From Tribonema minus (taxonomy: Eukaryota; Sar; Xanthophyceae; Tribonematales; Tribonemataceae): 64,000 nucleotides of DNA. The position numbers were made by a program, and so were the translations under genes. The DNA lies in NCBI GenBank assembly GCA_017506865.1, contig JAFCMP010000021.1, positions 186,001 through 250,000 on the forward strand, written 5' to 3'. This document shows, one piece after another, positions 4,154 to 63,564 of this stretch. The notes beneath the pieces were generated by a model that was given only the letters and a program-made list of their open reading frames with translations, made no database searches and was not told the origin of the DNA. Within the stretch, counting starts at the first letter, position 1, and each line of letters begins with the position of its first letter.

Positions 4154-4768
4154 ATGCACATGAAATCTCACGCGGTCGCCATGGCTATTGCACTTTCAAA
4201 AATGCTACCGCGATGGGATATCTACACGGGGCTGTACGTCCCTAAGAGACTGTACAGTCGCGAGCACATCGTCCCGAAATCAGTGCTACAGAAAGCGGGT
4301 CTGAACCACGCAATGTTGGACCTTAATAATCTGTACTGCGTCGACACTGCGGTCAACTGCATGCGCTCAAACTACAAGTACGTAGATGGCGACCCCGCAC
4401 ACATGCGGGAGATTGTGGAAGACGCCGATGCGAAGCTGGTTATGATGTCCTCCGGCATGCTCGCTGAGGATACGCACTCAAACATGGGAACCGTCATATG
4501 CACCAGGACGTCCGGCAGTGTTATCACGGTGAGCGTTTGCTTCGAAGGAACGATCATGACGGTTGACAATTCAAAACGGACAGTGGTGCCTCCCGTCATC
4601 GCCAGAGGAGCGATAGCGAGGTCCGTGTACAAAATGTACGACAGATATGACTGCCTGTTTGACTACAGACACCTAATACTTGATGAGGACGTGATGACAC
4701 GATGGCTCAAGTTGCCCAGATACAATGCAGAGATTAAACATGATGAGTTCTTAAGAAGTTTGAAGTAA
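4154..4768 (+). CDS. Endonuclease I-like His-Me finger nuclease
   Basis: 204 residues resembling secreted bacterial endonuclease I in motif order. It has REHIVPKS with the catalytic-type His38, then DLNNLYCVD (about 56-64) and VNCMRSNY (67-74), and near the end RGAIARSVYKMYDRYD (151-166). These match the EHxxPxS, DLhNL, N-xxRSN and RGDxAR signatures of the family. No clear signal peptide is seen, so it probably acts inside the infected cell or virion, perhaps degrading host DNA. Its stop overlaps the ATG of a following small frame as TAATG at 4766-4770. Confidence 0.7.
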   Translation: MHMKSHAVAMAIALSKMLPRWDIYTGLYVPKRLYSREHIVPKSVLQKAGLNHAMLDLNNLYCVDTAVNCMRSNYKYVDGDPAHMREIVEDADAKLVMMSSGMLAEDTHSNMGTVICTRTSGSVITVSVCFEGTIMTVDNSKRTVVPPVIARGAIARSVYKMYDRYDCLFDYRHLILDEDVMTRWLKLPRYNAEIKHDEFLRSLK

Positions 4769-5163
4769 TGGCGACTTCCTACCTGATGCATCTGCGATAC
4801 CCAGCGAAATCACCAGAGCAGATGTCAGAATGCACACCGCATCCGTGCTTCTTGTACAATCGTGAAATGTTCACATCAAGCAAGACTGACAGAGCGAGAG
4901 ACATGAACGTCGGTGGCATCGCATAGTGATGTGGAAACGGCAGTCATCATAGTACACTTGCACATTCGGAAAAAAGTGCAAAAAAGCCACATGGATACGT
5001 AGCAGATAGGGCAGTGCAGGAAATGGACACAACACAGGACAACAAGGAAGTGGTGACATTGAAAGCGGCCACCATCAAACCTGTTCTAGCTGCTGCCATC
5101 GTTTTCAAACCACGTATTGCTTGTGGAACCTCAATTGTAGTGATCCCATCTGCTAAAGCCTAA
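4768..5163 (+). pseudogene. Broken open frame after the endonuclease gene (TAG-TGA in the middle)
   Basis: An ATG at 4768 overlaps the previous stop (TAATG) and opens 52 codons. Two consecutive stops, TAG at 4924 and TGA at 4927, interrupt it. The same frame then stays open for another 77 codons to 5163. The protein is not recognised. It may be a decayed gene lying just before the transposon insertion, or two chance frames; the stop-start overlap favours a real gene originally. Confidence 0.3.
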
Positions 5164-5201
5164 TAACCGCGAGGAATGCCACCGGCAAGGTCTAGTATCA
5201 C

Positions 5202-5213
5202 TAGGGTTGGCAA
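5202..5213 (+). repeat. Left terminal inverted repeat of the hAT element
   Basis: TAGGGTTGGCAA, the exact reverse complement of 7990-8001. It is preceded by the target duplication copy at 5194-5201. Confidence 0.95.
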
Positions 5214-5341
5214 CACCGTATTCCGTAGATACACCGTATATCCGTATATACGCCGTATCTACGCCGTATGTCAATTTCTGGCGCGTCAAAATTCGTATTT
5301 TGCCGTATTTCCTTCTTTCAAGTCACACAGAGCAGTGCAGC

Positions 5342-7724
5342 ATGGCGGATGCCGCCGATCCTGGCCCCGACCTGGCCAAGCAGGCCAGAGCATTGTATCA
5401 AAAGCGTTGTGATCAAAAGCGCCAAGGTCAGGGGGGCTGGTGGGGGTCATTCAGTGTCGAGCTGGACTCAGTGAAGCACGAGGTGCGGCTTGTTTGCCTT
5501 CGTTGTTCAGCCAAGCTAGGTGCCAGCAACCCTTCGCGCGCAGCAAACGACCATCTTAAGAGCAAGGCATGCCTCAGAGCGACTGCTGCCAGTGCAGCAG
5601 CTGTTGCTGCTGCCGAAGCAGCAGCCGCTGCTGCTGCTGCTGCTGGCGATGGCGAGGAGGAAGTAGAGGTGACTGGCACTAAACGCCACCGCGGTGCTGC
5701 TGGCATCACACCTTACATGGCTACATCAGGCCAGATAACTCAAGCACGGAACAGCCTTGCCCGCTTCTTCTACAAGTCCGGGGTGGCGTTCCACCTGATT
5801 GAGCAGGAGGACTTGGTTGCAGCATTCGCTGCCCTTGGCGCCGACCTGCCTAACCGCAAAGCCTTGGCCGGGACAATGCTGAACAAGGAGCACGACCGCG
5901 TCAGCCGCGACGTCTGGGAAGCGATCGATGCCTTGCACCTCGTCCAGCTTGCCAGCGATGGGTGGAGGCGCAAGCATTGCGGAGACGGCACTCCGCTGGT
6001 TAACCTTTGCGCACTGTTGCCAAAGGGCGGTTCCTACTTCGTGACAACGGAGCCAGCGCGAGGCGTTTGCAAGAATGCGGAGTGGATCGAGGAGCTGCAC
6101 ATGCGGTGGGCGAAGAAGGTCACCAGGGGGAACCTGGACAGGCTGCTGGGAATGGTCATGGACAATACCAAGGTACGTGCTGCTGTAGAAGCTGCTACGG
6201 TGTGTGAAAGTTTTTTGCCAGTGCGTCATTTGCATGCAATGACAGCAATATATGCTACAATAAGTCCAGCAGTGCATGCAATGCAGCATATCATTGTAAT
6301 AAATTGAATGGAAGCAAGTCAACCAGCTCCCCACGCTTGCGCGCTTATCCAGATGCTCCCTTTCTTCGCTTGACACGTGGTTAGTAGCACAGCTCACACA
6401 GGAATTGGTAGTATGCTGGCAAATGCACATGTTGTGGCCATAAAAACTGGAGCAAATCTTGGTACATGCCTGCAGTGCCTCATGATGTTTTCCATCACCT
6501 GCAATAACTTTGCAGGCAAATCGTAAGGCGCTGGACCTGATGAAGCAGAAGCACCCGACTTGGCTGCTTCTGGGGTGCCAGGCTCACGCACTGGCCCTTC
6601 TCATCAAGGATCTACACGGCGAGAAGAATGCGCGATGCGACTGGTCCAAGAAAGCGTACGGCAAAGCGCTGATGATGTCCAACACCATCAACGGCTCAGA
6701 GACCATACACAGCGCCCTGCGTGAGCAGCAGAAGTTCAAGTACGGCAAAGTCAAGGCCGTCCGCTCTCACTGCCCCACGCGCTTCGCCATCCTGCACTTC
6801 ATCTGCTCCGACTTGCTCGACTCCGAGGAGGCCATCAAGCTGATGGTTGGCGACCGCAGCTGGGGTAAAGTGTCTGAGGGCACCACACATGCGGCAGCGT
6901 TTACGACTGCAGCCACAGTAGAGCCAGCACGGGGGCGGGCGGCAGCATACTACTTTTTCGATGAGGCAGCAGCGCTGAAGAAGCTAGTGCAGCCTGTGTC
7001 TGATGCCATTCACCAGGTTGAGAGCGACAAGCCGCTGTTGAGTCAGATGCTGCCGATCTGGAAGCAGCTGTTGCAGCATGCGGCAGACTTCGATGACCAC
7101 ATTGACAATGTCGAGCGCTCCCCTGTGCTGCCACTATTTGAGCGGCGCTACAACACTCACTTCGACAAGTCGTGGCCTGCAGCATATGTGCTTGACCCTG
7201 TCTACGCCTATAAGGTTGATGGGGAGTGGTTTCTGCCTTTCAGTAAACTCAGCAGGCTAGAGAGCAAGGGTGCGCAAGAGTGCTTTCTGGAGCTGGGGGG
7301 AGGGGAGCATGCAGAGGCTGTTGAGGCTGAGCTTGTCAAGTTGCAGCTTGCACCCCTTCCCGAGCCCATGTGGGCTGCGTTGCCTACGTTGACCAAGCGT
7401 ACATCGCTGCCTAAGGGCAAGGTTGAGCTCGCTGACAGCAGCATGCGCCGCGGCTGGTGGCAGACCTATGGTCGCGAGCATTTTCCTCATTTGTCGCGGG
7501 TGGCAGTGCGCCTGCTGTCGTTCCACGTGACTGCATGTGCAACCGAGCGCAACTGGTCCCTGTGGGGCAATGTGTACCCTAAGTGCCGCAGCAGGCTTGC
7601 ACTTGAGCGTGGTGAGAAGCTAGTGTTCATTAAAGGCAATGATAAGGCTGCTGAGCGCAAGACAGATGAGGAAGTCATGCTTACAGTGATGGAGGCGGCG
7701 GAGGAAGAGGTTGTCAACATGTAA
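5342..7724 (+). CDS. hAT transposase, two exons
   Basis: Exon 1 is 5342-6172 and exon 2 is 6516-7724; the 343-bp intron (GTACGT...TTTGCAG) sits between codons. The product is about 679 residues. N-terminal residues hold a BED-type zinc finger (CLRC...HLKSKAC) and then an alanine tract coded by GCT/GCA repeats with an acidic tail. A DUF659-like part (DGWRRK...) precedes the splice. The junction joins MDNTK to ANRKALDL and is followed by LGCQAHALALLIKDL, the conserved D-N...GC-AH-L-L block. The C-terminus has the hAT dimerisation signature ACATERNWSLWG...RSRLALER. ATG 5342 is the first start after the left end that precedes the BED finger. Confidence 0.9.
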
Positions 7725-7989
7725 CATGCAGATGGGGGGATGAAGGACTAGGGCAATATCTACACTAGGCTAATTACGCACATACATGATGTTATTTTCA
7801 AGTGTGTTTGCTTGTATTTATGTTTTACAAGTGTCTGGTTTAGCTGCTTCACTTTTGAAGTTGAAGTTGAAGTTTAAACGCCTGTACTGGTGATATGCGT
7901 TTGTCAGATACGGTTTAGAAATACGTATATACGGAAAATACGGCAAAATACGGTATTTTATCAGTATATGGTTTTCAGAAATACGGATT

Positions 7990-8001
7990 TTGCCAACCCT
8001 A
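7990..8001 (+). repeat. Right terminal inverted repeat of the hAT element
   Basis: TTGCCAACCCTA, the mirror of 5202-5213, followed by target duplication AGTATCAC at 8002-8009. Confidence 0.95.
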
Positions 8002-8083
8002 AGTATCACTGCGCAGAGACCTAACGATAACCGATATCTATATGTGCAACGCTATTACCGTCCGCAGAGGTTGAATTGACATT

Positions 8084-8638: not shown

Positions 8639-8854
8639 ATGTATGGCCTACAAAAAGTGGAGCGCATGTCCTCTGTGCACCGGTCAAACAGAAGTCCCAG
8701 CCAGCTACGGCGATATGGCCATGCGGCCAATGACATGATGTAAAATCTCCGCTCTCGAGCCTTTGAGTTCTGCTCAATTAAGTGTGACAGAACACGTCGG
8801 CACTGTTACCGACAGCAAGCAGCACATCGAGGAGTGCCTAGACATCCAGCCACC

Positions 8855-9626: not shown

Positions 9627-9803
9627 ATGACAGACGTGTTCGTCGTCATCCCTGCTAGGTCGTCCACCCCTGAAGCAGTTCTCTTTTGTAAGGAGGATGC
9701 AGTGTATTTGTGCCAGCTGTACTCGCGAGGGGCTGCAGCTTATCGCCTGCCGATCGGTCAATGTTACAACAGTGTGAAAGTTTACGAAAAGTTCGGCTCC
9801 TGA
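9627..9803 (+). CDS. Small open frame, 58 residues
   Basis: ATG at 9627 opens 58 codons (MTDVFVVIPARSSTPEAVLF...) ending in TGA at 9803. It is not recognised. The pattern of a beta strand, acidic turn and helix is loosely like the start of the next broken gene, so the two could be related small proteins. Short length keeps confidence low. Confidence 0.35.
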   Translation: MTDVFVVIPARSSTPEAVLFCKEDAVYLCQLYSRGAAAYRLPIGQCYNSVKVYEKFGS

Positions 9804-9865
9804 TGATGATGATGATCGCCTCCGCGTGTATGAACTGCTTCACAGATAATAGATGCATTCGGGAG

Positions 9866-10402
9866 ATGATCATGTACGCTGTCGGCCATTTTGAGAGTTA
9901 CGAGGAATCTCATCAGGAGTACAGCATTGATGCTGTGTTTGACACAGCGGATGCGGCATGTGCATTCTCAGAATCGTATCCTCACGTGTAATTTGACGTT
10001 GTCGAGCTTGAACTCAATGCAATACCTGAGCGCTTCGCTGACCACGACGCGAGAACCTGTTCTCAATGCACAGGTGACACCAGTAGGGCTTATGTGCGCC
10101 ACTTCAACGAGGAGAAGCGCATCAACCGAGAAATCACAGAGCAAACTGTCACCGACCTTACAAATGTTATCGTGGCCGCAACAGTTACATCACCACACTA
10201 TCTAGTGCGTGAGCTCGCCGCAGCTGTGCAGTGTAGCAGCATCAGCGACCTGCAACTGCGCAGTACGTGTGAAGCTGCGCTCAGCACGGAGCCACCGCTG
10301 CCAACGCATCTGCTGCGGACGGTGCAAGAGCTGGTGATCATGCTCACACAGAAAGCGCGTGATGACATGCCCTGCATCACATGCAACACTGCATCTGGCT
10401 GA
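9866..10402 (+). pseudogene. Small viral-type protein interrupted by an in-frame TAA
   Basis: From ATG 9866 the frame reads YAVGHFESYEESHQEYSIDA...FSESYPHV, meets TAA at 9989-9991, and continues in the same frame as FDVVELELNAIP... for 136 more codons to 10402. The first part has the look of small NCLDV proteins that pair an I-x-x-VF strand with an AxxFxxxY helix and then an FDVVE strand, so the stop splits one domain. A CSQC pair follows. An intron covering the stop was tested by eye and did not restore the frame. Either a nonsense mutation or read-through. Confidence 0.45.
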
Positions 10403-21144: not shown

Positions 21145-22443
21145 ATGGATCGTGACGGGGCGAACAAGGTAGCACGGCTTTCGGAAACACGACATAACCA
21201 ACCGCAAAGATGGATCAGCGACGACAGCATCGAGTCGATTTGCAGCTTTCTCGGCCCGGGCCACTTCTGGTCCGCGTGCTTGAATTCCGCTTGGAGGATG
21301 GCCTACATGCGAGCGACCGATGCGACGACGACAGCCATCACCTCTTCCTTCGCCATCTTCAACATCGCCTACGCTTCTGGCTACATCGTCAGCGAGAGCG
21401 CCTGCCATTCGTTGGCTAGAGCCGGAGGGCTGGAGCAGCTCCAGTTCATCAAGGCCAACGTGCCCGACCTGCTCTGGAGCCATGAGGTGACGGACGCAGC
21501 TGCGGCGGGGGGCAATTTAACGACTCTGCAGTGGTTGCTCGAAAACGACGTGCCGCTGACCACTAAAACCGCTCAGGCCGCCGCTAGAGGAGGACACGTG
21601 CATGTTCTCGCCTGGCTACTTCGAGCCGGCGTATACGACAAGAAAATGTTCTCCCATGCCGGCGCCGGCGGCATGACGAATGTACTGCAGTGGCTTCACG
21701 ATATTCCTGACAAGAACCTCAGGAGGCTAGGAAAATTTTCCACAGCGGTGACCAGCGCGGCGGCCACGGGGCAGGTCGAGACGTTGAAGTGGCTGATCGA
21801 CCACGGCTTCAAGACCCGCAATCACGACATCACGGCAGCCGCTCAGGGCGGGTTTACGGAATGTGTCGAGCTCATCTACCCTCACGTCGTCGTCGGCCTG
21901 TGCGATGACGCAGTCAACGCAGCGGCGGGGGCGGGCAACGCCGCCCTCGTCGGGTGGCTCGTCGACCACCAGTTCCCCACTGACCGGTTCACATGCGAGA
22001 TCGTGGCGAAGATGGGGGACGTGCATCTGCTCGAGCGGATCAGGGTGCGAGGCGAAAAATTAAACAGGAGCATCTGCAGAGGAGCAGCTGCGGGAGGGCA
22101 CCTTCACGTGCTCCAGTACGCAAAGGACAACGGATACAGAGGTGGCGAGGACGCGTGCCGCGCAGCAGCTGGCGGGGGGCACTTGGAGGCCCTGAAGCAT
22201 ATTCATGCTGACGGTGCCCTGTTGACACAGTTTACATTCACACAGGCGGCGCGCTTCGGCGACGTCGATGTCCTGGAGTGGCTGTGGCAGCAGGACTGCC
22301 CCTGGTCCGCCAACACGTATGCAGCCGCAGCCGCAGGAGGACACCTGCACGCTCTGCAGTGGCTGCGGGAACGCGGATGTCAGTGGAACGCACACACCAT
22401 CACGGAGGCTGCCGAATACGGTCGCCTAGACATCGTCATGTGA
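21145..22443 (+). CDS. F-box-like/ankyrin-type repeat protein, cut short by TGA
   Basis: 432 residues. The N-terminus (WISDDSIESICSFLGPGHF) looks like a divergent F-box; F-box proteins recruit targets to SCF ubiquitin ligases. The rest is a series of 27-33-residue repeats with the AAAGGHLHxLxWLxxxGC pattern common in giant-virus ankyrin proteins. The frame ends at TGA 22441-22443. The repeats continue in the same frame beyond it (22444-22836), and the register shows that a Trp codon is expected at the stop. A close relative is at 52767. Confidence 0.75.
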   Translation: MDRDGANKVARLSETRHNQPQRWISDDSIESICSFLGPGHFWSACLNSAWRMAYMRATDATTTAITSSFAIFNIAYASGYIVSESACHSLARAGGLEQLQFIKANVPDLLWSHEVTDAAAAGGNLTTLQWLLENDVPLTTKTAQAAARGGHVHVLAWLLRAGVYDKKMFSHAGAGGMTNVLQWLHDIPDKNLRRLGKFSTAVTSAAATGQVETLKWLIDHGFKTRNHDITAAAQGGFTECVELIYPHVVVGLCDDAVNAAAGAGNAALVGWLVDHQFPTDRFTCEIVAKMGDVHLLERIRVRGEKLNRSICRGAAAGGHLHVLQYAKDNGYRGGEDACRAAAGGGHLEALKHIHADGALLTQFTFTQAARFGDVDVLEWLWQQDCPWSANTYAAAAAGGHLHALQWLRERGCQWNAHTITEAAEYGRLDIVM

Positions 22444-22836
22444 GCGCGCAGCGGCGGGTGCAGGTGGGGTCCCAGTTCCATATCGGGTGCCGTCAGGAAC
22501 AAAAAAGTCAATGTCGCGATATGGATGCTGCAGAACGGATGCCCCTTCAACGACGCGACAGTAAATGCAGCCATAGCCATCAATGCTGCAGGTCTCATCG
22601 GTCTCATGCGCGCATCGGGACGACACATCAGAATATCAGACAAGATGATCAATGTGGCGATGCAAAAGTGCCGACCGAGCGTAATTACGTGTCTTGAGGA
22701 ATGGAAGGCGTCACGCGCAGCAGCGACTGCGCCCTACGCAGAGCAAGGTACACCTGTAGTTGCGGCTCGAGGGAGTTTGATTACGGAGTGTATGTCCATC
22801 AAATGCTCGACAAGCTGTTTGAAAAGGACGCGTTGA
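22444..22836 (+). pseudogene. Continuation of the F-box/ankyrin gene after a nonsense codon
   Basis: Same frame as 21145-22443. It contains ARSGGCRW, then AIWMLQNGCPFNDATVNAAI and further repeat-like sequence. GC-to-GC spacing is 27 residues before, across and after the stop, and residue 23 of each unit is Trp, which is exactly where the TGA sits. So this is a TGG-to-TGA change, not a gene end. The last part overlaps the following kinase gene. Confidence 0.65.
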
Positions 22837-23333
22837 TCATGATGCCTCACATATCTGATGCTGTTAAGGTAGCCATCGATCGCGACGGCAGCAAAGTGGG
22901 ACTCCTTATCATGCACGTGTCCGGTCAGCCTCTGTCGCATGTTTTCACATCACGCAATTCAAAGCTGGCCGTGACGGCAGCTTCCACTGTGGGAGCCGTC
23001 TTGAAGCGACTGCACCAGCACGAGATAGTTCATGGAGATGCGCACTCAGACAACTTTTTGATGGGGGATGACGGAATTGTGTACGTGATCGACTTTGACC
23101 GAATGACGTCCATCAGAGGTGCGAGCAAGAGAGTGACGACCGAGTGCATGGACTATGATTTGGTGCTTTTTCTGCAATTCACACCGGTACACGTCTGGAA
23201 ACCTTTTTTCAATGCGTACGGGCGCACTCCCGCATATACACTTTCAAAGAAAACGGTAGGGACAGTGATGCAAAAGCTATGGAGAAAATACAGCGACTAC
23301 CTCGACGAGCAGATGCTGCACGTCAATGAATAG
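22701..23333 (+). CDS. Small protein kinase-like protein (RIO/Bud32-like)
   Basis: 210 residues. The C-lobe is clear: IVHGDAHSDNFLM has the catalytic HxDxxxxN and YVIDFDRM the metal-binding DFD. This HGD(A/L)H form is typical of RIO, Bud32 and aminoglycoside-kinase-like enzymes. The N-lobe is short (from YVHQMLDKLFEKDALIMM), without an obvious Gly-rich loop, so the ATP-binding part may be reduced or the gene truncated at its 5' end. ATG 22701 lies inside the remnant ankyrin frame. Confidence 0.7.
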   Translation: MEGVTRSSDCALRRARYTCSCGSREFDYGVYVHQMLDKLFEKDALIMMPHISDAVKVAIDRDGSKVGLLIMHVSGQPLSHVFTSRNSKLAVTAASTVGAVLKRLHQHEIVHGDAHSDNFLMGDDGIVYVIDFDRMTSIRGASKRVTTECMDYDLVLFLQFTPVHVWKPFFNAYGRTPAYTLSKKTVGTVMQKLWRKYSDYLDEQMLHVNE

Positions 23334-23338
23334 GTTAC

Positions 23339-24088
23339 TCACTTGTACGGTATGAACGAAAAAGCCCTGGGGATATCGAATGATGCGGTGAGCACTGGGA
23401 TCTGAGCGTAGCCTTGGGCCCTGAGAAGTTTTCTCATCTCGGCCACAAGCTTGAACACGTCTGTCCGGGTCGCAGGATTGATCTTCTGTGACTTGATGCG
23501 CGCGCACGTCATCACCCCTTGGTACGTCCGGCTGTCCTGATCGTATGCATCAGCGGACGTCTGAGGGTCCCGACACCCGGAAATGTAAGCTATTTTTCCA
23601 GGGAGCTCTGCATCACCTGACAGTGTGCATATCTTTGATGTGTACTGCCTGTTCATGTCCAGCAGAGAGCCAGAGTGACACGCGTCTGCTAGAAAGCAGA
23701 CTGTTGTGGCAATGTTGAATCGCTGCAGAAGTGATTTCAGAAGATCATCGGTGATGACGCCCTTGATGTTGAAGTCAGAGGGGCATATAGCCTCATCCCT
23801 ACCATCAGCCTCATCTCCGGTCACATCTTTGACCTGTGTGCCATGCCCGCTGTAACTGATGAAAACATAGTTCAAGTTTTGTGAGACGCTGAGATCAGCG
23901 AGATGCGATATCGCATTGCATAACTCCTCTCCGGTGGGCTCACATAGCACAGTGATGTCTTCCATTGCCACAGCTCCTGAACCATCCAGCAGCTTTGACA
24001 AGTTGTTGGCGTCATTCACACATCCTTGCAGTGCATTCGCAGTCTTGCCATAATTGATTCCGATGCAAAGCGCTCTTGATCTACTCAT
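23339..24088 (-). CDS. Metacaspase (caspase-like cysteine protease)
   Basis: 249 residues forming a single p20/p10-type metacaspase domain. It starts RALCIGINYGKTANALQGCVNDA. The catalytic His82 is in SYSGHGTQ and the catalytic Cys137 in DACHSGSLLD. Metacaspases cut after Arg/Lys and control cell death in protists and algae. A viral copy could alter host death or process virion proteins. It is convergent with the kinase gene, 5 bp apart. Confidence 0.9.
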   Translation of the reverse strand: MSRSRALCIGINYGKTANALQGCVNDANNLSKLLDGSGAVAMEDITVLCEPTGEELCNAISHLADLSVSQNLNYVFISYSGHGTQVKDVTGDEADGRDEAICPSDFNIKGVITDDLLKSLLQRFNIATTVCFLADACHSGSLLDMNRQYTSKICTLSGDAELPGKIAYISGCRDPQTSADAYDQDSRTYQGVMTCARIKSQKINPATRTDVFKLVAEMRKLLRAQGYAQIPVLTASFDIPRAFSFIPYK

Positions 24089-24649: not shown

Positions 24650-27600
24650 TCCTGCCAGAAATGCTTTTCAGAGCGGCTGACCCAAAATCCGGAAGGGGTG
24701 AGTGGTGACTATGGGAGGTTCAAGACTCCCCTACATGGTTACTCACCGTCAAGGGTATGAATTCTGTTACTATATTTATCTGACGTTTACTTTTTACTTC
24801 AACAGTCTGTACTTTGCAATCCAGTACTGCCAGAAATACTTTTCAGAGCGGCTGACCCAAAATCCGGAAGGGGTGAGTGGTGACTATGGGAGGTTCAAGA
24901 CTCCCCTACATGGTTACTCACCGTCAAGGGTATGAATTCTGTTACTATATTTATCTGACGTTTACTTTTTACTTCAACAGTCTGTACTTTGCAATCCAGT
25001 ACTGCCAGAAATACTTTTCAGAGCGGCTGACCCAAAATCCGGAAGGTACGACCCTTAGCAGATTTTCGTAAGTCACACAAATATTATGTAGCACCATATA
25101 CCGGTAGGGTAAGCGGTGACTATCGGAGGTTCAAGGCTCCCCTACATGGTTACTGACCCTAAAGGGTATGTATCTTAAAATTAGAATAATTTGAAGTTTA
25201 CTTCTTACTTCAACAGTCTGTACTTTGCAATCCGGTACTGCCAGAAATACTTTTCAGAGCGGCTGACCCAAAATCGGACAGGTACGACCCTTAGCAGATT
25301 TTCGTAAATCACGCAAATATTATGTAGCATCATGTACCGGTAGGGCGAGTGGTGACTATCGGAGGTTCAAAGCTCCCCTACATGGTTACTGACCCTAAAG
25401 GGTATGTATCTTAAAATTAGTATAATTTGAAGTTTACTTCTTACTTCAACAGTCTGTACGTTGCAATCCGGTACTGCCAGAAATACTTTTCAGAGCGGCT
25501 GACCCAAAATTGGACAGGTACGACCCTTAGCAGATTTTCGTAAATCACGCAAACATTATGTAGCATCATGTACCGGTAGGGCGAGTGGTGACTATCGGAG
25601 GTTCAAAGCTCCCCTACATGGTTACTGACCCTGAAGGGTATGTATTCTGTACTAAATATAATTTGAGGTTTACTTCTTACTTCAACAGTCTGTGCTTTGC
25701 AATCCGGTACTGCCAGAAATACTTTTCAGAGCGGCTGACCCAAAATCGGACAGGTACGACCCTTAGCAGATTTTCGTAAATCACGCAAATATTATGTAGC
25801 ATCATGTACCGGTAGGGTGAGTGGTGACTATCGGAGGTTCAAAGCTCCCCTACATGGTTACTGACCCTAAAGGGTATGTATTCTGTACTAAATATAATTT
25901 GAGGTTTACTTCTTACTTCAACAGTCTGTGCTTTGCAATCCGGTACTGCCAGAAATACTTTTCAGAGCGGCTGACCCAAAATCGGACAGAAACGACCCTG
26001 AGCAGATTTTCGTAAATCACGCAAATATTATGTAGCATCATGTACCGGTAGGGTGAGTGGTGACTATCGGAGGTTCAAGGCTCCCCTACATGGTTACTGA
26101 CCCTAAAGGGTATGTATTCTGTACAAAATATAATTTGAAGTTTACTTCTTACTTCAACAGTCTGTACTTTGCAATCCGGTACTGCCAGAAATACTTTTCA
26201 GAGCGGCTGACCCAAAATCGGACAGGTACGACCCTCAGCAGATTTTCGTAAATCACGCAAATATTATGTAGCATCATGTACCGGTAGGGCGAGTGGTGAC
26301 TATCGGAGGTTCAAAGCTCCCCTACATGGTTACTGACCCTAAATGGTATGTATCTTGAAAGTAGTATAATTTGAAGTTTACTTCTTACTTCAACAGTCTA
26401 CACTTTGCAATCCGGTACTGCCAGAAATACTTTTCAGAGCGGCTGACCCAAAATCGGACAGGTACGACCCTTAGCAGATTTTCGTAAATCACGCAAATAT
26501 TATGTAGCATCATGTACCGGTAGGGTGAGTGGTGACTATCGGAGGTTCAAGGCTCCCCTACATGGTTACTGACCCTAAAGGGTATGTATCTTAAAAATAG
26601 TATAATTTGAAGTTTACTTCTTACTTCAACAGTCTACACTTTGCAATCCGGTACTGCCAGAAATACTTTTCAGAGCGGCTGACCCAAAATCGGACAGGTA
26701 CGACCCTTAGCAGATTTTCGTAAATCACGCAAATATTATGTAGCATCATGTACCGGTAGGGTGAGTGGTGACTATCGGAGGTTCAAGGCTCCCCTACATG
26801 GTTACTGACCCTAAAGGGTATGTATTCTGTACAAAATATAATTTGAAGTTTACTTCTTACTTCAACAGTCTGTACTTTGCAATCCGGTACTGCCAGAAAT
26901 ACTTTTCAGAGCGGCTGACCCAAAATCGGACAGGTACGACCCTCAGCAGATTTTCGTAAATCACGCAAATATTATGTAGCATCATGTACCGGTAGGGCGA
27001 GTGGTGACTATCGGAGGTTCAAAGCTCCCCTACATGGTTACTGACCCTAAATGGTATGTATCTTGAAAGTAGTATAATTTGAAGTTTACTTCTTACTTCA
27101 ACAGTCTACACTTTGCAATCCGGTACTGCCAGAAATACTTTTCAGAGCGGCTGACCCAAAATCGGACAGGTACGACCCTTAGCAGATTTTCGTAAATCAC
27201 GCAAATATTATGTAGCATCATGTACCGGTAGGGTGAGTGGTGACTATCGGAGGTTCAAGGCTCCCCTACATGGTTACTGACCCTAAAGGGTATGTATCTT
27301 AAAATTAGTATAATTTGAAGTTTACTTCTTACTTCAACAGTCTGTACTTTGCAATCCGGTACTGCCAGAAATACTTTTCAGAGCGGCTGACCCAAAATCG
27401 GACAGGTACGACCCTTAGCAGATTTTCGTAAATCACGCAAATATTATGTAGCATCATGTACCGGTAGGGCGAGTGGTGACTATCGGAGGTTCAAAGCTCC
27501 CCTACATGGTTACTGACCCTAAAGGGTATGTATCTTAAAATTAGTATAATTTGAAGTTTACTTCTTACTTCAACAGTATGTACTTTGCAATCCGGTACTG

Positions 27601-27996
27601 CCAGAAATACTTTTCAGAGCGGCTGACCCAAAATCGGACAGGTACGACCCTTAGCAGATTTTCGTAAATCACGCAAATATTATGTAGCATCATACACCGG
27701 TAGGGTGAGTGGTGACTATCGGAGGTTCAAGGCTCCCCTACATGGTTACTGACCCTAAAGGGTATGTATCTTAAAAATAGTATAATTTGAAGTTTACTTC
27801 TTACTTCAACGGTCTGTACTTTGCAATCCGGTACTGCCAGAAATACTTTTCAGAGCGGCTGACCCAAATTCGGACAGGTACGACCCTTAGCAGATGTTTG
27901 TAAATCACGCAAATATTATGTAGCATCATATACCGGTAGGGTGAGTGGTGACTGTCGGAGGTTCAAGGCCCCCCCACATGGTTACTCACCCTAAAG
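24650..27996. repeat. Tandem array of a 236-bp unit, about 15 copies
   Basis: The GTGACTATCGGAGGTTC core recurs at about 24702 and 24877 (175 bp apart), then every 236 bp: 25113, 25349, 25585, 25821, 26057, 26293, 26529, 26765, 27001, 27237, 27473, 27709 and 27945. Units at 26057-26764 and 26765-27472 repeat as a three-unit (708-bp) higher-order block. Each unit contains an imperfect inverted repeat (TAGGGTGAGT...ACTGACCCTA). It also has a GGAG/CTCC hairpin around GTTCAAGG and an intron-like GTATGT...TTCAACAG stretch. Short open frames of 64 codons occur in some units only and are not conserved, so I do not call genes here. Confidence 0.95.
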
Positions 27997-30519: not shown

Positions 30520-32558
30520 TCATGATGATGTCGTCGCGACGTCAAACTGCAGTGCTCCGGACCAGTCTACATGGCGACTGTCGTAAAAGTGTCCGTCCGC
30601 TGCGAAGAGCTTGAAGCGCATGCTCCTAATCTTCAGTATGTTCACATCCAGCTTCGAGACCGCACTCAGGAAATCCTTGTTGAGGAATGATATCGCGTCG
30701 GACCCTCCCACAAGCGGCAGGCGCGCGAACAGCGTCGTGCCCGGCAGGTTGGCCACGTGTATGTTCCCCACCGGCTGATCGTTGAGTATCAGTTGAAGGT
30801 ACATGTATCTGTGCCCTATGGACATGTCAAACCTGTTGGGCGCCATCGTCAGGACCGGCGAGTACACGTCGGTCGGCGAGTACACCCCGGTGCCGTTGTT
30901 CACCAGCGTCAGCGTGCAGTCTTTGCCGGGCAGCAGCCACGCAGGGTAGCTGATCTTCACCAGCATTCTGTCGTCGTAGTTGGCGCCGTCTACCGAGTCA
31001 AAACCTACTATCACTCCCTCCGCCAGCTGCCACTCATACATCGGATGGAGCAAGGAGTCATAGTCTGTCGCATTGAAGACAACTTTTCTGTCCAGATAAG
31101 TCGCCGTGTCTATGGTGAACCCGCTGGAAACCTCATAACCTACAGTGAACGCATTGTCTCCGGCCGAGACCAGTACGGTTTCAAATTAGCTATCCATTCC
31201 ATGAAGCGGAACGCGGGACTCGTGCTGTGAACGGAGAGCACGTACACTTGCGCATCTACACCGCTGACGGGATCCGTAAAATTCAAGTATTCCATGAACG
31301 CTTCCATCCTTCCCTTGAGCGTGAGATGCGTCTCGTCCTGCACTGCAACCACCTCGTGGTACGCTTGATCAAGGAATGTGTTGGACCCTGAGATGGCCAC
31401 AATGTCACCGATATTCGCGAAGTGCGGGTGTTCCGTGCCTACCACCATGGCCCCGTCGGCTTGTGCGAAGGGACTCTGCAGTCCCAGAACGGTGCTGGTG
31501 CCTATCGTAGGGGCCCATGCATCCTCTGACGTGGAGAACCCCATCAACGTGCCCAGGTTGTCAAAGCCGGTTTGCGGCTTACTGAGCGGCTCCAAGTTTG
31601 CCGACGTGGACACTGGGATGGAAGCTCCTAAGCCTAGTGTTCCCACTATTGAAGACATATCTGAACGCGTGCTGATCTTTGCCGCGCGGCTCATGCCCGT
31701 GACTGTCGCTGTGGTTACAGTGGTCATCGCCATGATGGACCTCACCGTGAGCCTGGAGCCGAGCACCGTCTCCACCACCACTACCTGCGAGCCGAACCTT
31801 CCGCCCAGCACCATATTGCACGCTGCGCCAGGGCTGAGCGGGTACGACTGCGCGTCGGCGACTGTGACCTGTATCTTCGACTTGCTCACCGAGCCGTCGG
31901 GGTTGGCCACCGTCTGGGCGCCTATGACGATGACGTTGGTCGACCGGAAGTGCAGCGAGTACGGAACTTTCTGCGTGCTGCGCACTCCCACAATGCCGAA
32001 TGCGGACGACCTCTGCACTGAGTACTTGTTGAGCAGGGTTGAGTTCTGGCTGCCGACCGCTACTGGCGAATTGAAAGAGTAGTTCAAGGCGTCTACGAAC
32101 TCATCGATGCTGTAGTTGCCTGAAGACACGGCTACGAAGAACGGCTGCCACGAGGCCGACTGGTACTCGCTCACGTAGAGCCTGCCTCCTGCGACTATGT
32201 AGTCCGTGTGGGGTATCTCTACATTCAGCAGTCTGATGCCTTTGACGTCGACTAGCGAATCAGGCACTTCTAGCACGCAGTTGTTCGGCGACGGGTACAA
32301 TAGTTTGTCACGATCCGCAGAGTTGATCGCAATGGTGAATCTGCTCTTGTCGCCCTCATCAAACACTGAGCCCCTGATGGCTGTAGCCTGTGTGCTCGTC
32401 GCCGCGGTGTTGACATTGCTACCCGTCCCGCCGCCGTCTTGGAGGCCAGCATAGTTACCACTATATGCAGAGAACCCACCTGCGTCTGCGCCGAATCCAC
32501 CGCCACCTCCCCCTTGTGTGGTACTGCCGTAAAAGTTGTACCTGGCAGAGTCATTCAT
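30520..32558 (-). pseudogene. Virion structural protein (NSADR-type), frame broken near 31185
   Basis: ATG 32558 starts a Gly-rich leader followed by FTIAINSADRDKLLYPSPNN and IRLLNVEIPHTDYIV, the signature of a large structural protein conserved in many NCLDVs. The first frame stops at 31140. The protein clearly goes on one frame over from about 31185 (ETVLVSAGDNAFTVGYEV, HPMYEWQLAEGVIVGFDSV) to 30520. The joint is in a TTT run after WIAN, so loss of one T would explain it. No slippery heptamer for programmed shifting is seen. An intact form would be about 680 residues. Confidence 0.75.
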
Positions 32559-40792: not shown

Positions 40793-42289
40793 ATGACCCG
40801 TTCACCACTCGTGAAGATTGGAAAGGCATTGAAGATGAATAAGAGGAAGATCTGAAAAATTGTGGAATGTAACAAGTATGCCCAGGGAGGGACAGGCCTC
40901 TGCAAGGGCCACGGCGGAGGCAGACGTTGTAGTGCTCCAGACTGTAAAAACAGCACGTCAGGCAGAGAAAAATACTGCAGGGGGCACGGCGGGGGAAGGC
41001 GGTGCATAACCAAGGGTTGTACGAAAGGCGCCGAAGGTTCGTCAGATCATTGCAGGAAAGATGGAGGCGGCCGACGATGTATGACAGAGGGCTGCGACAA
41101 GGGTGCCCAGGGGTCATCAGGTCACTGCGGCAAGCATGGAGGGGGGAGACGTTGTCAAATAGAAGGTTGCACCAGGCTTGCCGAAGGCGCAACAGACTAT
41201 TGCAGGGGACATGGAGGAGGATGAAAATGCTCACGGGAGGACTGCGATAATTGTGCTGCGACAGGCTCAGATATATGCTTCTTCCATGGCGGCGGAAAAC
41301 GATGCATAGAAGACGATTGTACCAAGGGCGCAGTTGGCGGAACAGCTTACTGCATTGGCCATGGAGGGGGAAAACGCTGCTCTATAAAAGGCTGCGACAA
41401 AGGCGCTAAGGGGGTGAGTGATTATTGCATAGGTCACGGAGGCGGTAACCACTGTGCAAAAGAAGATTGTAACAAGAGTGCTCAAGGAAACACAAAGTTC
41501 TGCAAGGGCCATGGAGGAGGCACCAGGTGCTCAGTACCAGGGTGCGACAAGAGCGCACAAGGTAGTACAGAATTTTGTAAGGGACATGGAGGCGGAGAGA
41601 GATGTGCAATCGAAGGCTGCGATAAGAGCGCAGCAGATTCAACCAAATATTGCAAAGGCCATGGAGGCGGCAACCGATGCACCAGGGATGGCTGCGACAA
41701 AAGCGCTCAAGGTGCAACCGAGTTCTGCATCAGCCACGGAGGGGGTTTGAGATGTGAACACGGGCGACTTCTGCCTCGGTGCCGTGGAGAGGTCTGTCCT
41801 GTAAACAATATCGGCAGGCGATCCTTTGAGGAGATGTTCCTGGACTCCACAGCATTCATAATATGGAGCGGCGCCGACAATTTGGACATGTTTCTGCAGG
41901 CCATCGCCCAGAGCTTCGAGCTTGAACATGTAGTGTGTCCAGACCTCGTCATGGGCACACGAGCATTCTTCCATGACGGCCATCGCTGGCATCACGAGAT
42001 AGGAGAGAGGGATAAGCTCAAGACAGCAGGCATGGTGAGCGCGGGGTTCTCCGTAGTGCGCACGCGCGACCGCATGCCTCCCATTGTGGGGGCAGACAAC
42101 GTGTTGGTCGATGCTAGACAGGGTGTGCGTGTCATGTCAGAAATGTTAGGCAAAGCTCTTGGAGTTGAGGCTGAGGCGTGGCCCAATCTGTGGCTCAAGG
42201 CAGACAGTCTAGCACAACGAGCCATATTGACGCTCTCACAGCAGTATTCACAGACGAAGCAGGGCAGCATGGATGATTGGCTCGTGTAG
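40793..42289 (+). pseudogene. Zinc-type CxxHGGGxRC repeat protein fused to a VSR-like nuclease domain, two in-frame TGA codons
   Basis: ATG 40793 begins a frame that meets TGA at 40853 and at 41222 but is otherwise open to 42289. The body is about 14 repeats of C-x(4-5)-C...C-x-x-HGGGxRC, a Cys/His unit seen in WRKY19-like and oomycete proteins. The TGA at 41222 stands where other units have Arg (CGA in one neighbour), so a C-to-T change is likely. The last 170 residues end in FFHDGHRWHHEIGERDKLKT, then GFSVVRTRDRMPPI. That is like VSR/PD-(D/E)XK nucleases (DGxxWH...rDxxKt...GxxVxRiR). Each half would be coherent without the stops. Confidence 0.6.
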
Positions 42290-42375: not shown

Positions 42376-43470
42376 TCACGCGGATCGCTCAAAGCGGAAC
42401 CCGAGTTCGTTGCAAATGGTTTTCCACAAACTGTCTTGAACTACCATCTTCTCTTTGCTCTTGAGTAGGGAAAACCTCTCCGCCACATCAGGATAGCCCA
42501 AAATGTTTGCCATCTTGTGAATGAGGTAGCTGTACGATAGCATGTTCGACCTCCCTTCAGGTCTAAGACGCTCCCAAGGAGCCTGTATGAGTTGAAAGAG
42601 GTGAAGAAGTTCTCCCTCCTGGGTCTGCGTCAGAATGAGGGGCTCCTGGTCCGTCGTCAGACACCAGATGCGCGTCGTGTGGTTGTAAAGGCGCGACAAG
42701 CCCAGTTGCTTCAGTATGAGGCGTATGTCTTTCGGGGTGACCTTGCAGAGCTCGTCGTGGTTGTACGTCTTGGCCAGCTCCTGGGAGATTTTTTCCAGCA
42801 CATCAGGCTCTATCTGTGTGGACTCCCGGCCCTGAACCCTCTTGAGGTGATCCCTGAAGTGGTTGCTCCTCTTGTAGAGGTACGGCGTGTGTATGGAGAC
42901 GCCCTCCCTGAAAGATGTGTCGGGCACCATGTACCCGTTCGTCTCCCCGCACGTCAAACAGATGGATTGCGCGCTGCGGGGTTCCAGGACCTTGACCGTG
43001 TTGCAGAGCTCACAGTACTGGTCATCATCCTTGTCTATGAAGTCGTCCACCTCGTCTTCATCCACGAGCGTAGCGTCCGTCTTCACGACGAGGAAAGACG
43101 TGATAGAGCACGTCTCCCTGCCTCCCACCTTCATGCGCTTTAGGAAACGCTGGTCGGGCTCGTTCTTGTGGTGGATCGCCAGCGCGCGCGCCAGGACCCT
43201 TGGAAAGATGACATCGACCTGCGGACACGTCCTATCGGTGGCGGACATGGGCGGCTGAGCAGCCGATGACTGCACAGATGAGGTGGGGCATGCAGGCTGC
43301 TGCTGGTCCTGCGCAGCGGGCCTGCGTTGGATGGTGCGCCTAGGTCGTTTATAGCAGGGCGTGGATTCCGGGGAGGCGGCTGCACACTTCGACGCCATGA
43401 GCACGTCTGCTCGGTCTGCCGCGTGCACTTCTTCATTTTGGGAATCACGAGTATCGCCATAGGTTTCCAT
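42376..43470 (-). CDS. Late transcription factor VLTF3-like
   Basis: 364 residues. NCLDV transactivator of late genes, homologous to poxvirus A2. The N-terminal 90 residues are disordered and basic. A zinc ribbon has CELC (153-156) and CLTC (171-174). TPYLYKRSNHFRDHLKRVQG at 195-214 is the hallmark block, followed by the conserved helical C-terminal domain. It is intact. An AT-rich CATATTTTTTCTGG run lies about 60 bp upstream (43526-43539). Confidence 0.9.
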   Translation of the reverse strand: METYGDTRDSQNEEVHAADRADVLMASKCAAASPESTPCYKRPRRTIQRRPAAQDQQQPACPTSSVQSSAAQPPMSATDRTCPQVDVIFPRVLARALAIHHKNEPDQRFLKRMKVGGRETCSITSFLVVKTDATLVDEDEVDDFIDKDDDQYCELCNTVKVLEPRSAQSICLTCGETNGYMVPDTSFREGVSIHTPYLYKRSNHFRDHLKRVQGRESTQIEPDVLEKISQELAKTYNHDELCKVTPKDIRLILKQLGLSRLYNHTTRIWCLTTDQEPLILTQTQEGELLHLFQLIQAPWERLRPEGRSNMLSYSYLIHKMANILGYPDVAERFSLLKSKEKMVVQDSLWKTICNELGFRFERSA

Positions 43471-44061: not shown

Positions 44062-44391
44062 AGTGGGGAAATCGAGTTTGCGCGGTACGGTTACACACGA
44101 TGTACCCCTTCGTTCCGCACGGAGTATTCGCAACACATTGAAGTTGTATATTATGTCCTGGACCGCATGGGCTGCGCGCACGATAAATCGGGCTTGCAAT
44201 AACTAAATCTACGGAGGAGCCGGCGGTTCGGCGCTGGCCGGCGAGGGCCGCGGCACTTGCAACAGTGCGATGCGGCGGTAAGCGCTGACGTCGCCATCAT
44301 TGAAGTTTGTCAGTACGTAGGAAAGAAAACCTCCGTGTACCGATTCATACGCTCTGAACGCATTCACAACTAGGTGGTCTGTCGCCCAGAC
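44062..44391. other. Intergenic gap, no firm gene
   Basis: 330 bp with no plus-strand gene. A minus-strand frame (44209-44469) is open but half of it is antisense to the acetyltransferase gene, so it is not called. Confidence 0.4.
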
Positions 44392-45581: not shown

Positions 45582-45582
45582 T

Positions 45583-47539: not shown

Positions 47540-48568
47540 GATTTGGAATCCGGTAATGCCAGAAACTGTTTTCATAGGTGAAGTTAGTGACTTTGGAATC
47601 CGGTACTGCCAGAAATACTTTTCAGAGCAGCCGACCCAAAATCAGACAGGTACGACCCTTAGCAGATTTTCGTAAAATAACGTAAATATTATGCAGCATC
47701 ATATACCGGTAGGGTGAGTCGCATGTTCAAGGCTCCCCTACATGATTACTGACCCTAAAGTTTTCTGTACTAAATATAATTTGAAGTTTACTTCTTACTT
47801 CAACAGTCTGTACTTTGCAATCCGGTACTGCCAGAAATACTTTTCAGAGCGGCTGACCCAAAATCGGACAGGTACGACGCTTAGCAGATTTTCGTAAATC
47901 ACGCAAATATTATGTAGCATCATAGACCGGTAGGGTGAGTGGTGACTATCGGAGGTTCAAGGCTCCCCTACATGGTTACTGACCCTAAAGGGTATGTATT
48001 CTGTACTAAATATAATTTGAAGTTTACTTCTTACTTCAACAGTCTGTACTTTGCAATCCGGTACTGCCAGAAATACTTTTCAGAGCGGCTGACCCAAAAT
48101 CGGACAGGTACGACCCTTAGCAGATTTTCGTAAATCACGCAAATATTATGTAGCATCATGTACCGGTAGGGTGAGTGGTGACTATCGGAGGTTCAAGGCT
48201 CCCCTACATGGTTACTGACCCTAAAGGGTATGTATTCTGTACTAAATATAATTTGAAGTTTACTTCTTACTTCAACAGTCTGTACTTTGCAATCCGGTAC
48301 TGCCAGAAATACTTTTCAGAGCGGCTGACCCAAAATCGGACAGGTACGACCCTTAGCAGATTTTCGTAAATCACGCAAATATTATGTAGCATCATATACC
48401 GGTAGGGTGAGTGGTGACTAACGGAGGTTCAAGGCTCCCTTACATGGTTACTGACCCTAAAGGGTATGTATTCTGTACTAAATATAATTCTGAAGTTTAC
48501 TTCTTACTTCAACAGTCTGTACTTTGCAATCCGGTACTGCCAGAAATACTTTTCAGAGCGGCTGACTG
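47540..48568. repeat. Second tandem array of the 236-bp unit, about 4 copies
   Basis: Same unit and orientation as 24650-27996, with cores near 47939, 48175 and 48411 spaced exactly 236 bp. A shortened, diverged copy stands in front (47580-47770) and a fragment at 47551. It ends abruptly at 48568 inside the unit, followed by unique sequence and the gene at 48628. Confidence 0.95.
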
Positions 48569-58767: not shown

Positions 58768-59566
58768 TCACACACGCTGCTTCTTAGTGATGCTATTGCC
58801 AACATCGCTGTCGCTGTCATCAATGTTGCTGCCAGCGTCATCATCGCTGGCAGGCTTGGTGACGGTTTTGGCCGCCTTGCGCTTGTTGCCGCTCTTGCGA
58901 TACAGCGCGCCCAACTCCTTGAACCGGCTTAGCTGAGCGGTGGTGATGGATTTGATGAAGTTGCTCTGGATGTGGTCCCAAAGTGATCCCATCTTCTTAA
59001 GGTGTGTGTCTGGTGATCTTTTAGAAGGCACTCCCTTGCTTGCTGCCACGTAGTCCAAAAGTTGATCAATTCTGCTGTGCATGGTCCTCTTCGCTTCCTC
59101 CTTCGGGACTGGTGTCCTGAAAAACCCTGGCTTAATGTGGCAGATATGAATGATTTGTTGCTCTGCATGACTTTCAATATGTGGTCAGCGTCGCGTGTGG
59201 CGCCACCACCGTCGGAGTCCGCCAGTCGTTCTGGACCAGGCGACAGAGCACCACGCTAAGAAATGTAGCTACATCCCTCTCTCGCAGTTTGCGTGTCTTC
59301 CGAATTTTCGCCTGCAAGCCGTGGTGAACACCGTCAGCGTCTATGGAAATGCCATCTAAGCCGTATTCTCCGAACGGCTTGCCCTTGCGTCGCGCCTGAA
59401 TTGCCTGGTAACGAGCTTCGTTGAGGTCGTCAACGTACCCCGCGTCAACGAGAATGTCGAGACCGACCTTGGACCAGTGCCAAACATCGTGACCGGTGGT
59501 TTCCCTGTGCACGTCGCACATTTCGAATTCGAACCTCAGCCACTCCGCAATACGCTCAGCCACCAC
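58768..59566 (-). pseudogene. Mrr-like nuclease-type gene with frameshift
   Basis: The first frame (59566-59174) has YGLDGISIDADGVHHGLQAK and RERDVATFLSVVL. This resembles the GiDgi...g..iQxK block of Mrr-like restriction domains that begin some helicases. Near 59190 the sense passes to another frame (ESHAEQQIIHICHIKPGFF, then KEEAKRTMHSRID) running to 58768 with a Lys/Asp-rich end. No helicase motifs are present, so it is a shortened or decayed form. There is no ATG at the 5' end; GTG 59566 or ATG 59521. Confidence 0.45.
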
Positions 59567-59690: not shown

Positions 59691-59691
59691 C

Positions 59692-61316: not shown

Positions 61317-61425
61317 GCTGCTTTGTGGTCACTCCTGGTTTTTTAGATCCTGCCTATCAAACTGACGTTCGCCAAACCCTTTCGAGCTACTTGCGTGCTC
61401 GGCATATCGGGTTATCAGCAACTAT

Positions 61426-61590: not shown

Positions 61591-61626
61591 CTTTGCTTCC
61601 TGAGAGCAGCAGGTGGGGAGGACGCG

Positions 61627-61667
61627 ATGACGTCTACAGCTGAGGGTGCCTCAACAGCAGCAGCAGA

Positions 61668-61698
<31 letters not shown>

Positions 61699-62871
61699 GT
61701 AACAACAGCAGCAGTAGCAACAGCAGCAGCAGCAACAGCAGCAGCAGCAACAGCAGAAGCGGTAGCGGCGCAGGAACTGAAGCGACAGCGGAAACGAAAG
61801 GCTGACCGTGACCGCCAGGCCGCGCTGCGTCGAGATGAGGAGTGGAGAAAACAGAAAAACGAGGTAGAGAGGGAGAGGCAGCAGGAGCTGAGGGCGAGCA
61901 AAAAAACATTAGACGTCCTGGAGGCATCGTTGCCGATTGCCCCGATGCAACTGGTTGCTCACTTGCAGCAGCAGCAACGGCATCAAGCAGAGCCCCTGTC
62001 CTTGGACGACCTCGTCAAGGACATCTACGCCTACTCCGTTAGAGCGGATCTCCACACGGTCCCTGTGGATGATGCGAGTGCCGATTCTGCCTGCGTGGAG
62101 GAGGGCCGCCAGCCTCGCCTCTGCAGAGTGCCGCCGGATCACCGCTTCGGCCCTGCTGAGGCAGTACTTCGCAGGTGGCAGGAGAGCACGTCGCTGGAGC
62201 GGCACGGCTTCTGCCTGTGCGACCTATCTGGCTCTGTGGACCACAGAAAACTGGTCGGCCAGCTCAAGGGATACGCACCTACCAAAGCTGCGAAGTGGGT
62301 GAAGCTGGTCAACGGCAAGCAGGTGGCGCACGGGCGTAGCGGGTTCAGCGAAGCGGGTCGCATCATGTGCGTGGCGTTCAGGTCAGACGATGAGGGAGGC
62401 CTTCCGATGGTGGAAGGCACTGAGTCTTTGCTGAGTGACCGTGAGTACTCGGCTGCATTGCATATGGTCAAGGACTGTGCTCCCACCGCTTGCAGGCAGG
62501 AAATAGAGACGTACACGCTGCAGCAGATTCAGTACCTGTTAAGCATACCTGATTGTCCCCGGCAGCCCCAGCACACCGATTTTCCGACAGTGAAGGACAG
62601 CAACATCAGCGGCGCAGACGGGTTGACGATACTGATCGCATTAGACACAGACGCCGCATGGTACATTCAGCCGTACGGTTTGAATTATGAAATTCGTATC
62701 CAGGTGCCCCGTTTCTGGGCGATAGCGTTCAAAGGCGACGTGCCTCACGCGGGCGCTGAGTTAGTCGGCACACGTGTCAACGACATGCGCTATCACATGT
62801 ACTTGACCAGAGGCAATGCTAAGGTGCCTCATGAGAAGGACGGCTCTATATACAATGTGCGGTACCTGTAA
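61627..62871 (+). CDS. 2OG-Fe(II) dioxygenase-like protein with alanine tract
   Basis: 414 residues from ATG 61627 (open upstream to 61453). An Ala-rich run coded by GCA/CAG repeats (about 61650-61765) precedes a basic coiled coil. The C-terminal half fits the double-stranded beta-helix: HTD (His316, Asp318), VPHAGAEL (His374) and Arg388 in NDMRYHMY, the HxD...H...R set of 2-oxoglutarate oxygenases. These hydroxylate protein, DNA or small molecules. Exact subfamily is unknown; TET/JBP-like is only a guess. It has no close neighbour on the same strand. Confidence 0.55.
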
Positions 62872-62905
62872 CATCCTTCGGTGAGCGACTATCTCAAACT
62901 TGTCC

Positions 62906-63564
62906 TCATCTTTGTGCCTGCTCGCGTTCTTTGCCGGAGGCCACTTGTGCATATCGAGAATCACTAGCTTTCCAGTCTGTCCACTGCTGGATTTTCTGTT
63001 GTACCTCAGTGACCTGCGTTTCCTTCTCGTCGAAGTACGATGTGTACCCCTTCTTTCCCTTCATGCGCTCGACGACCTTCTGTGCTTGCTGTTTGTGGGT
63101 GAGGAGAGCCTTCTCACGGAACTGAATATCCTCAACCAACTCCTTCATGCGCTCTCCAGCAGTGTCTCCCCTGTTTATTCTCGTCTCAATCTCCTGTCTG
63201 ATGGAGTCATCAGTCATATGTTGGGCTTGCACATGCATTCCGTTGTGCAATGTCTTGTCGTGGTCGGGGCTAAGAAAGTTGGCCTCTCTTTCTGCCTGAT
63301 CCAGGTCATTGACAAAGTACTCATCCTTTCCCCACTGCGGCATTTCAGACCACTCCTGTCTGGCCGCTGCCCATCTCTTCTTCTTATTGGTGAACAGAAT
63401 GTCACCGAGGAACCTCTCAAACAGACTCGTCTGGCATCAGCAGGCACTGTCAAGTAGGTTTGCATGAGGTAGTCCTCCCACGCGTACTGATCAACGAGCT
63501 CACCATTCACCCAAATTCTGCCGTCATTGCGAAAGTCAACTGGAGGCTCCCACGCGTCATTCAT
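62906..63564 (-). pseudogene. Coiled-coil protein gene with frameshift near 63440
   Basis: ATG 63564 opens with NDGRIWVNGELVDQYAWEDY and LMQTYLTVPADA. The sense then moves one frame over (SLFERFLGDILFTNKKKRWA, then EWSEMPQWGKDEYF) and runs to 62906 with Lys/Glu/Gln-rich helices. The two frames overlap by 130 bp with no intron signals. So one indel in a single gene is the simplest reading. Not recognised. Unbroken length would be about 220 residues. Confidence 0.5.

What the first reader, a model, noticed from the sequence alone, without database searches (positions are those of the whole stretch)
4768..63564. Widespread in-frame stops and frame breaks in a viral gene set
In-frame stops occur at 9989 (TAA), 22441, 29918, 40853 and 41222 (TGA). 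Frame breaks occur near 24370, 31185, 59190 and 63440, in genes that otherwise read smoothly. TGA also ends many intact genes (for example 2957, 4090), so code reassignment is unlikely. The pattern suggests an endogenised, slowly decaying viral element rather than a replicating virus, or a draft assembly with indels.
Basis: partly seen in the sequence, partly recalled or inferred. Interest (0 to 1): 0.75.

Follow-up and report, generated by a model that had tools for sequence, protein, structure and literature searches.

The report
Decaying giant-virus provirus in an alga
The window is part of a giant-virus genome lodged in the yellow-green alga Tribonema minus, where a host transposon has landed in it and several genes are already broken while related copies are still whole; it is a good example of a known kind of thing.

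Summary
It carries giant-virus genes (VLTF3, AEP/C962R-type primase, DUF5767, DUF5901). 9989 is suggestive; 29918 and 40853 are not established; 24370 looks like a normal gene end. Related elements on C179 and C90 keep compared frames open (15 of 16 query pieces found in each, no stop in any reported match). A 2,800-bp hAT transposon at 5202-8001, near-identical to 26 full-length copies on 24 other contigs, sits inside a perfect 8-bp target duplication. Outside the window DNA polymerase B has two frameshifts. Broken DUF5901 still shows dN/dS near 0.04 against relatives, so its damage looks young. Best reading: an endogenised, early-decaying provirus of the phaeovirus/xanthovirus kind. Not shown: host flanks of C21, raw reads, phylogeny. 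A known kind of thing, with new detail.

The parts
174..2312 (+). AEP/C962R-type primase gene, uninterrupted
   Evidence: Pfam PF23162; C179 and C90 copies open
5202..8001 (+). hAT DNA transposon, 2,800 bp, 12-bp terminal inverted repeats, 8-bp target duplication at 5194-5201 and 8002-8009
   Evidence: PF05699; 26 full-length near-identical copies on 24 other contigs
9710..10402 (+). ORF with TAA at 9989, suggestive of a nonsense lesion
21145..22707 (+). Ankyrin-repeat gene with in-frame TGA at 22441
22701..24088 (.). Kinase-like (+) and caspase-like (-) genes, uninterrupted
   Evidence: open in C179 and C90
24372..24641 (-).
24871..27996 (+). Tandem array of a 236-bp unit, 13.2 copies
30520..32558 (-). 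DUF5901 gene split into two frames at 31170-31176
40796..42289 (+). WRKY19-type zinc-finger array gene with TGA at 41222 (real lesion) and 40853 (not established)
42376..43470 (-). VLTF3-like late transcription factor, uninterrupted
   Evidence: PF04947
44138..44299 (+). 162-bp interspersed repeat
   Evidence: 31 other places at 99-100% and one at 93% among 39 scored of 498 candidates; also at L033:5677-5838
47590..48566 (+). Second array of the 236-bp unit, 4.2 copies
58768..59566 (-). Two stubs of one gene with about 1.7 kb of its middle missing
63245..63618 (-). Gene piece with a frame change near 63440 and a stop at 63592-63594

Best explanation
The window is the middle of a large giant-virus element of the phaeovirus/xanthovirus kind carried in the nuclear genome of Tribonema minus. 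Shown: viral gene content; related elements in the same assembly; a host transposon inserted with target duplication; nonsense codons, frameshifts and a large deletion in genes that are open in relatives; low dN/dS between elements. Inferred: a virus integrated (phaeoviruses are thought to use a tyrosine recombinase), became a resident provirus, escaped selection recently, and is collecting its first lesions by ordinary host mutation and transposition. With DNA polymerase B frameshifted twice, this copy probably cannot complete a cycle by its own means.
For: Capsid-family genes at 10 places on 9 contigs and VLTF3 at 8 places on 7 contigs, C21 in both. hAT with 8-bp duplication, near-identical to 26 full-length copies on 24 other contigs. 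Intact relatives at the confirmed lesions. In C179 and C90 15 of 16 query pieces each were found, with no stop in any of the 32 reported matches. Polymerase frameshifts against P0038, P0039 and P0041. dN/dS total 0.09 for C21-C179 and 0.12 for C179-C90.
Against: Host flanks of C21 were not seen, so integration of this copy is inferred. Most genes in the window are open. Synonymous sites between C21 and its relatives are near saturation (dS about 2.2), so dN/dS is rough. The ankyrin gene (0.25-0.29) and the deleted gene's stub (0.21-0.35) lie above the 0.05-0.21 of unbroken genes with a defined ratio, which could mean earlier relaxation. Other elements in the genome also hold stops: two capsid matches on C144 and C485 have one TAG each.
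Confidence: 0.85

Rival explanations
1. Draft-assembly artefact: the element is intact and the breaks are consensus errors.
For: Several breaks are simple frame changes; no reads were available. None of the four frame-break sites checked lies in a long homopolymer, except that a run of five T lies near 24370, which neither proves nor excludes error.
Against: Compared genes of C179 and C90 in the same assembly show no stop; a 1.7-kb deletion and a transposon with target duplication are not base-calling errors; nonsense codons at 22441 and 41222 are substitutions by their continuous frame.
Confidence: 0.08
2. A latent but functional provirus in which the breaks are spliced introns, readthrough or dispensable genes.
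For: An active Ectocarpus element has introns in 14 genes, DNA polymerase and MCP included (PMC13236599, passages). The C21 polymerase holds a 103-bp GTGAGT...CAG insert absent from P0038. Most ORFs are open.
Against: At 22441, 31173 and 63440 and at both polymerase frameshifts the alignment to relatives is contiguous, leaving no room for an intron. 59190 is a deletion.
Confidence: 0.05
3. A free virus co-sequenced with the alga and not integrated.
For: Dense, mostly viral-looking open frames over the 264 kb looked at; host flanks of C21 not seen.
Against: Host hAT and other interspersed repeats inside it, frameshifted polymerase, and relatives on contigs of 1.2-2.1 Mb.
Confidence: 0.02

Closest known systems
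Xanthoviruses, proposed sister clade of phaeoviruses, known from xanthophyte genomes (PMC13236599 section 6 part 1 and passages; PMC12993054 passages)
   Same: Same host group and host genus; hallmark genes in the algal genome
   Different: Membership was not tested by a tree here; those passages do not describe lesions of this element. The Tribonema polymerase and capsid sequences used there as a tree root may include copies of this one
Phaeovirus endogenous elements of Ectocarpus (PMC13236599)
   Same: Large integrated giant-virus genome (288-407 kb there), multiple copies per genome, transposon insertions, introns in DNA polymerase
   Different: One Ectocarpus element (EVEc) is shown to be active; this copy has a frameshifted polymerase. 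Their transposon was an IS4-type restricted to the element; here it is a host hAT found on many contigs
Eroded giant endogenous elements of Euglena gracilis (PMC12455990, start of abstract only)
   Same: Transposon invasion and erosion read as inability to reactivate
   Different: Here most compared frames are still open

Membership tests
Endogenous giant-virus element (Nucleocytoviricota) | Hallmark genes (capsid, VLTF3, polymerase B, primase) | tested here: met
Endogenous giant-virus element (Nucleocytoviricota) | Continuous with host chromosome | tested here: inconclusive
Endogenous giant-virus element (Nucleocytoviricota) | Gene erosion relative to open relatives | tested here: met
Phaeovirus/xanthovirus clade | Position in a polymerase or capsid tree | not tested
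   No tree was built; best non-Tribonema polymerase hits are unnamed metagenome proteins
Phaeovirus/xanthovirus clade | Hybrid histidine kinases (recalled as a phaeovirus trait, not from a call) | tested here: met
   L024, L026, L034 ORFs with HisKA, HATPase_c and response-regulator domains
Phaeovirus/xanthovirus clade | Tyrosine recombinase near an end and CC/CC junctions | tested here: inconclusive
   No integrase family hit among 80 C21 ORFs scanned, but not every ORF was scanned and the ends were not seen
hAT transposon | Terminal inverted repeats, 8-bp target duplication, hAT dimerisation domain | tested here: met

The most novel reading that the evidence does not exclude
Tribonema minus holds a graded series of sibling giant-virus proviruses, some with open frames in what was compared (C90, C179) and some decaying (C21), so that a damaged copy may still exchange sequence with or borrow functions from intact siblings, and the decay of single copies does not end the lineage.
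Probability: 0.12. Interest if true: 0.6.

Novelty: new member of a known kind. Interest (0 to 1): 0.32.

Why it matters
If right, it is a snapshot of the first steps of giant-virus decay inside a host: low dN/dS still visible, a handful of lesions, one replication gene hit, a transposon arriving, with open sibling copies in the same genome as an internal control. That makes the order of events in endogenisation testable in a close relative of brown algae. It also shows that automated gene models can bridge such breaks (public protein P0037).

Tried and rejected
Codon-usage Viterbi scan for further frame breaks: badly behaved (one-base segments), discarded. Codon log-odds around each site: weak bias and only 6 control gene ends passed the filter, not used; against my reading, 29918 and 40853 scored no better than ordinary gene ends there. 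The search for homologous proteins with 29933-30505 found nothing. VLTF3 against the phage collection: no match. Code reassignment rejected: TGA ends 14 of 34 uninterrupted ORFs. My first idea that a repeat inserted at 24370 was dropped.

Limits of the selection test: no dN/dS ratio could be given against C179 for 6 genes (2361-2957, kinase, caspase, 29376-29720, SprB2, papain) and against C90 for 7 (the same plus DUF5767), because synonymous sites were saturated. The 16 query pieces and 18 were chosen from orthologues I had fetched, partly because of the lesions, so they are not a random sample; C179 lacks 8834-9430 and C90 lacks 43603-44061 because those places were not fetched. The deleted gene's stub differs much more between C179 and C90 than the rest (dN/dS 0.54) and was kept in the totals.

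Full report
WHERE THE WINDOW LIES. The window is C21:186001-250000 of a 158,181,000-base genome in 554 contigs. VLTF3 and DNA polymerase searches returned Tribonema minus proteins on contigs of 1,195,936, 1,361,928, 2,115,883, 2,105,467 and 483,246 bases, the lengths of C179, C90, C112, C223 and C21. The host is therefore taken to be T. minus, a yellow-green alga. Capsid-family matches fall at 10 places on 9 contigs and VLTF3 at 8 places on 7 contigs, so the genome holds several giant-virus elements.

WHAT IT CARRIES. 40 window ORFs were scanned with Pfam. Hits include an AEP/C962R-type primase, VLTF3, DUF5767, DUF5901, DnaJ, a caspase, a papain-like and an Ulp1-type protease, ankyrin genes and a phosphatase; many of the 40 had no hit. 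40 ORFs from flanking C21 tiles add DNA polymerase B, a capsid gene, hybrid histidine kinases, an EsV-1-7 motif, BRO and two reverse-transcriptase ORFs. Gene-dense sequence continues over all of C21:86-350 kb, with 31-98% of each stretch in long open frames. I did not see host flank.

THE NINE SITES. The stops are as written. After each flagged stop the same frame stays open for 122-354 codons, against at most 83 (median 15.5) after 34 uninterrupted ORFs; the chance of 122 open codons in random sequence of this composition is about 0.6%. Related elements decide most cases. 22441: frames in C179 and C90 align across it. 31173: one frame in C179 and C90, two here. 63440: one frame in C162, two here, plus a stop at 63592-63594. 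41222: inside a regular zinc-finger array; 61 of 69 homologous rows elsewhere have no stop, 8 do.

59190 IS A DELETION. The upstream piece matches C90:1019807-1020139 and C179:391623-391955, inside open frames of 863 and 847 aa. The downstream piece 58771-59127 matches C90 ~1021967-1022311 and the corresponding end in C179, in the same frame by arithmetic on the coordinates. About 1.8 kb separates the parts in the relatives and 97 bp here.

SITES THAT DID NOT HOLD OR STAY OPEN. 24370 is the stop of an 89-aa ORF: a distant C90 relative has a 92-codon frame without stop, and C110 similarity (that copy has one TGA) ends at the same point. 29918 may lie before its gene (ATG 30065; similarity of three copies starts at 30038-30047). 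40853 has 28 open codons before it. 9989 has one homologue of 28% identity starting right after the stop.

A REPLICATION GENE IS BROKEN. On C21 the exonuclease and polymerase domains of DNA polymerase B lie in different frames. Against P0038, P0039 and P0041 the frame changes near L019:1160-1162 (C21 ~117,161), and again near 1684 (C21 ~117,684), without inserted sequence. Between them is a 103-bp GTGAGT...CAG insert (L019:1414-1516) where P0038 has none; an intron alone would not mean decay, because an active Ectocarpus element has introns in DNA polymerase and MCP (PMC13236599, passages). The public model P0037 gives a 928-aa protein over this region, so gene models can bridge such breaks.

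TRANSPOSONS AND REPEATS. Window 5202-8001 is a 2,800-bp hAT element with AGTATCAC on both sides. One search scored 40 of 190 candidates; 26 essentially full-length copies at ~100% lie on 24 other contigs. The 162-bp repeat at 44138-44299 is 99-100% identical at 31 other places and 93% at one (39 of 498 candidates scored), and lies at the end of a reverse-transcriptase ORF at C21 ~325.7 kb. Six arrays of a 236-bp unit are spread over the C21 stretches read, with relatives on C401, C514, C92 and C110.

AGE AND SELECTION. Over 4,403 codons C21 and C179 give dN/dS 0.09 (dS 2.2, near saturation); C179 and C90 over 4,138 codons give 0.12 at dS 0.17. The broken DUF5901 gene has 0.03-0.04 on both sides of its break. 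The ankyrin gene has 0.25-0.29 on both sides and the deleted gene's stub 0.21-0.35, above the 0.05-0.21 of unbroken genes with a defined ratio, so some earlier relaxation there cannot be excluded. Most divergence was laid down while the genes worked, and the lesions came late. In C179 and C90, 15 of 16 query pieces each were found, some cut by tile ends, with no stop in any of 32 reported matches. C179 and C90 stretches are 91.6-98.0% identical apart from one of 76.9% and one 161-bp piece of 87%; dS runs from 0.06 to 0.48 by gene, which may mean recombination.

WHAT IS KNOWN. Xanthoviruses, a proposed sister clade of phaeoviruses, and phaeovirus-like tyrosine recombinases in Tribonema are in print (PMC13236599: section 6 part 1 and passages; PMC12993054: passages). 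Searches for Tribonema + giant virus (5 papers), xanthovirus, Tribonema minus + genome + viral and Xanthophyceae/phaeovirus terms showed no title or abstract start that describes this element; bodies were not read except as said, and supplements not at all. Eroded, transposon-invaded giant-virus elements are reported from Euglena (PMC12455990, start of abstract).

VERDICT. Endogenised, early-decaying giant-virus element, confidence 0.85; a new, well-controlled example of a known kind; interest 0.32.

Noticed in passing
window 24871-27996 and 47590-48566; L017, L018, L029, L030-L031: A 236-bp unit forms six tandem arrays spread over the C21 element, with related arrays on C401, C514, C92 and C110. 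Role and origin unknown.
   Followed up: partly
window 40796-42289: Zinc-finger array gene lying between the homologues of two genes that are adjacent in C179 and C90; its C-terminal part looks like a restriction-type nuclease (recalled resemblance, not tested), so it may be a mobile gene.
   Followed up: partly
L019:1414-1516 (C21 ~117,414-117,516): 103-bp GTGAGT...CAG intron-like insert in DNA polymerase B that the C112 relative P0038 lacks.
   Followed up: partly
C179 and C90 elements (L002/L003, L036-L045, L049, L050): Synonymous divergence between the two elements varies from 0.06 to 0.48 by gene, suggesting recombination or mixed ancestry.
   Followed up: no
L016:5886-9530 and L033:1601-5767: Two long reverse-transcriptase ORFs within the C21 element.
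   Followed up: no
L023:2449-9512: Two long minus-strand ORFs (794 and 1,559 aa) abut with one base of overlap; they could be one broken gene or two coupled genes.
   Followed up: no
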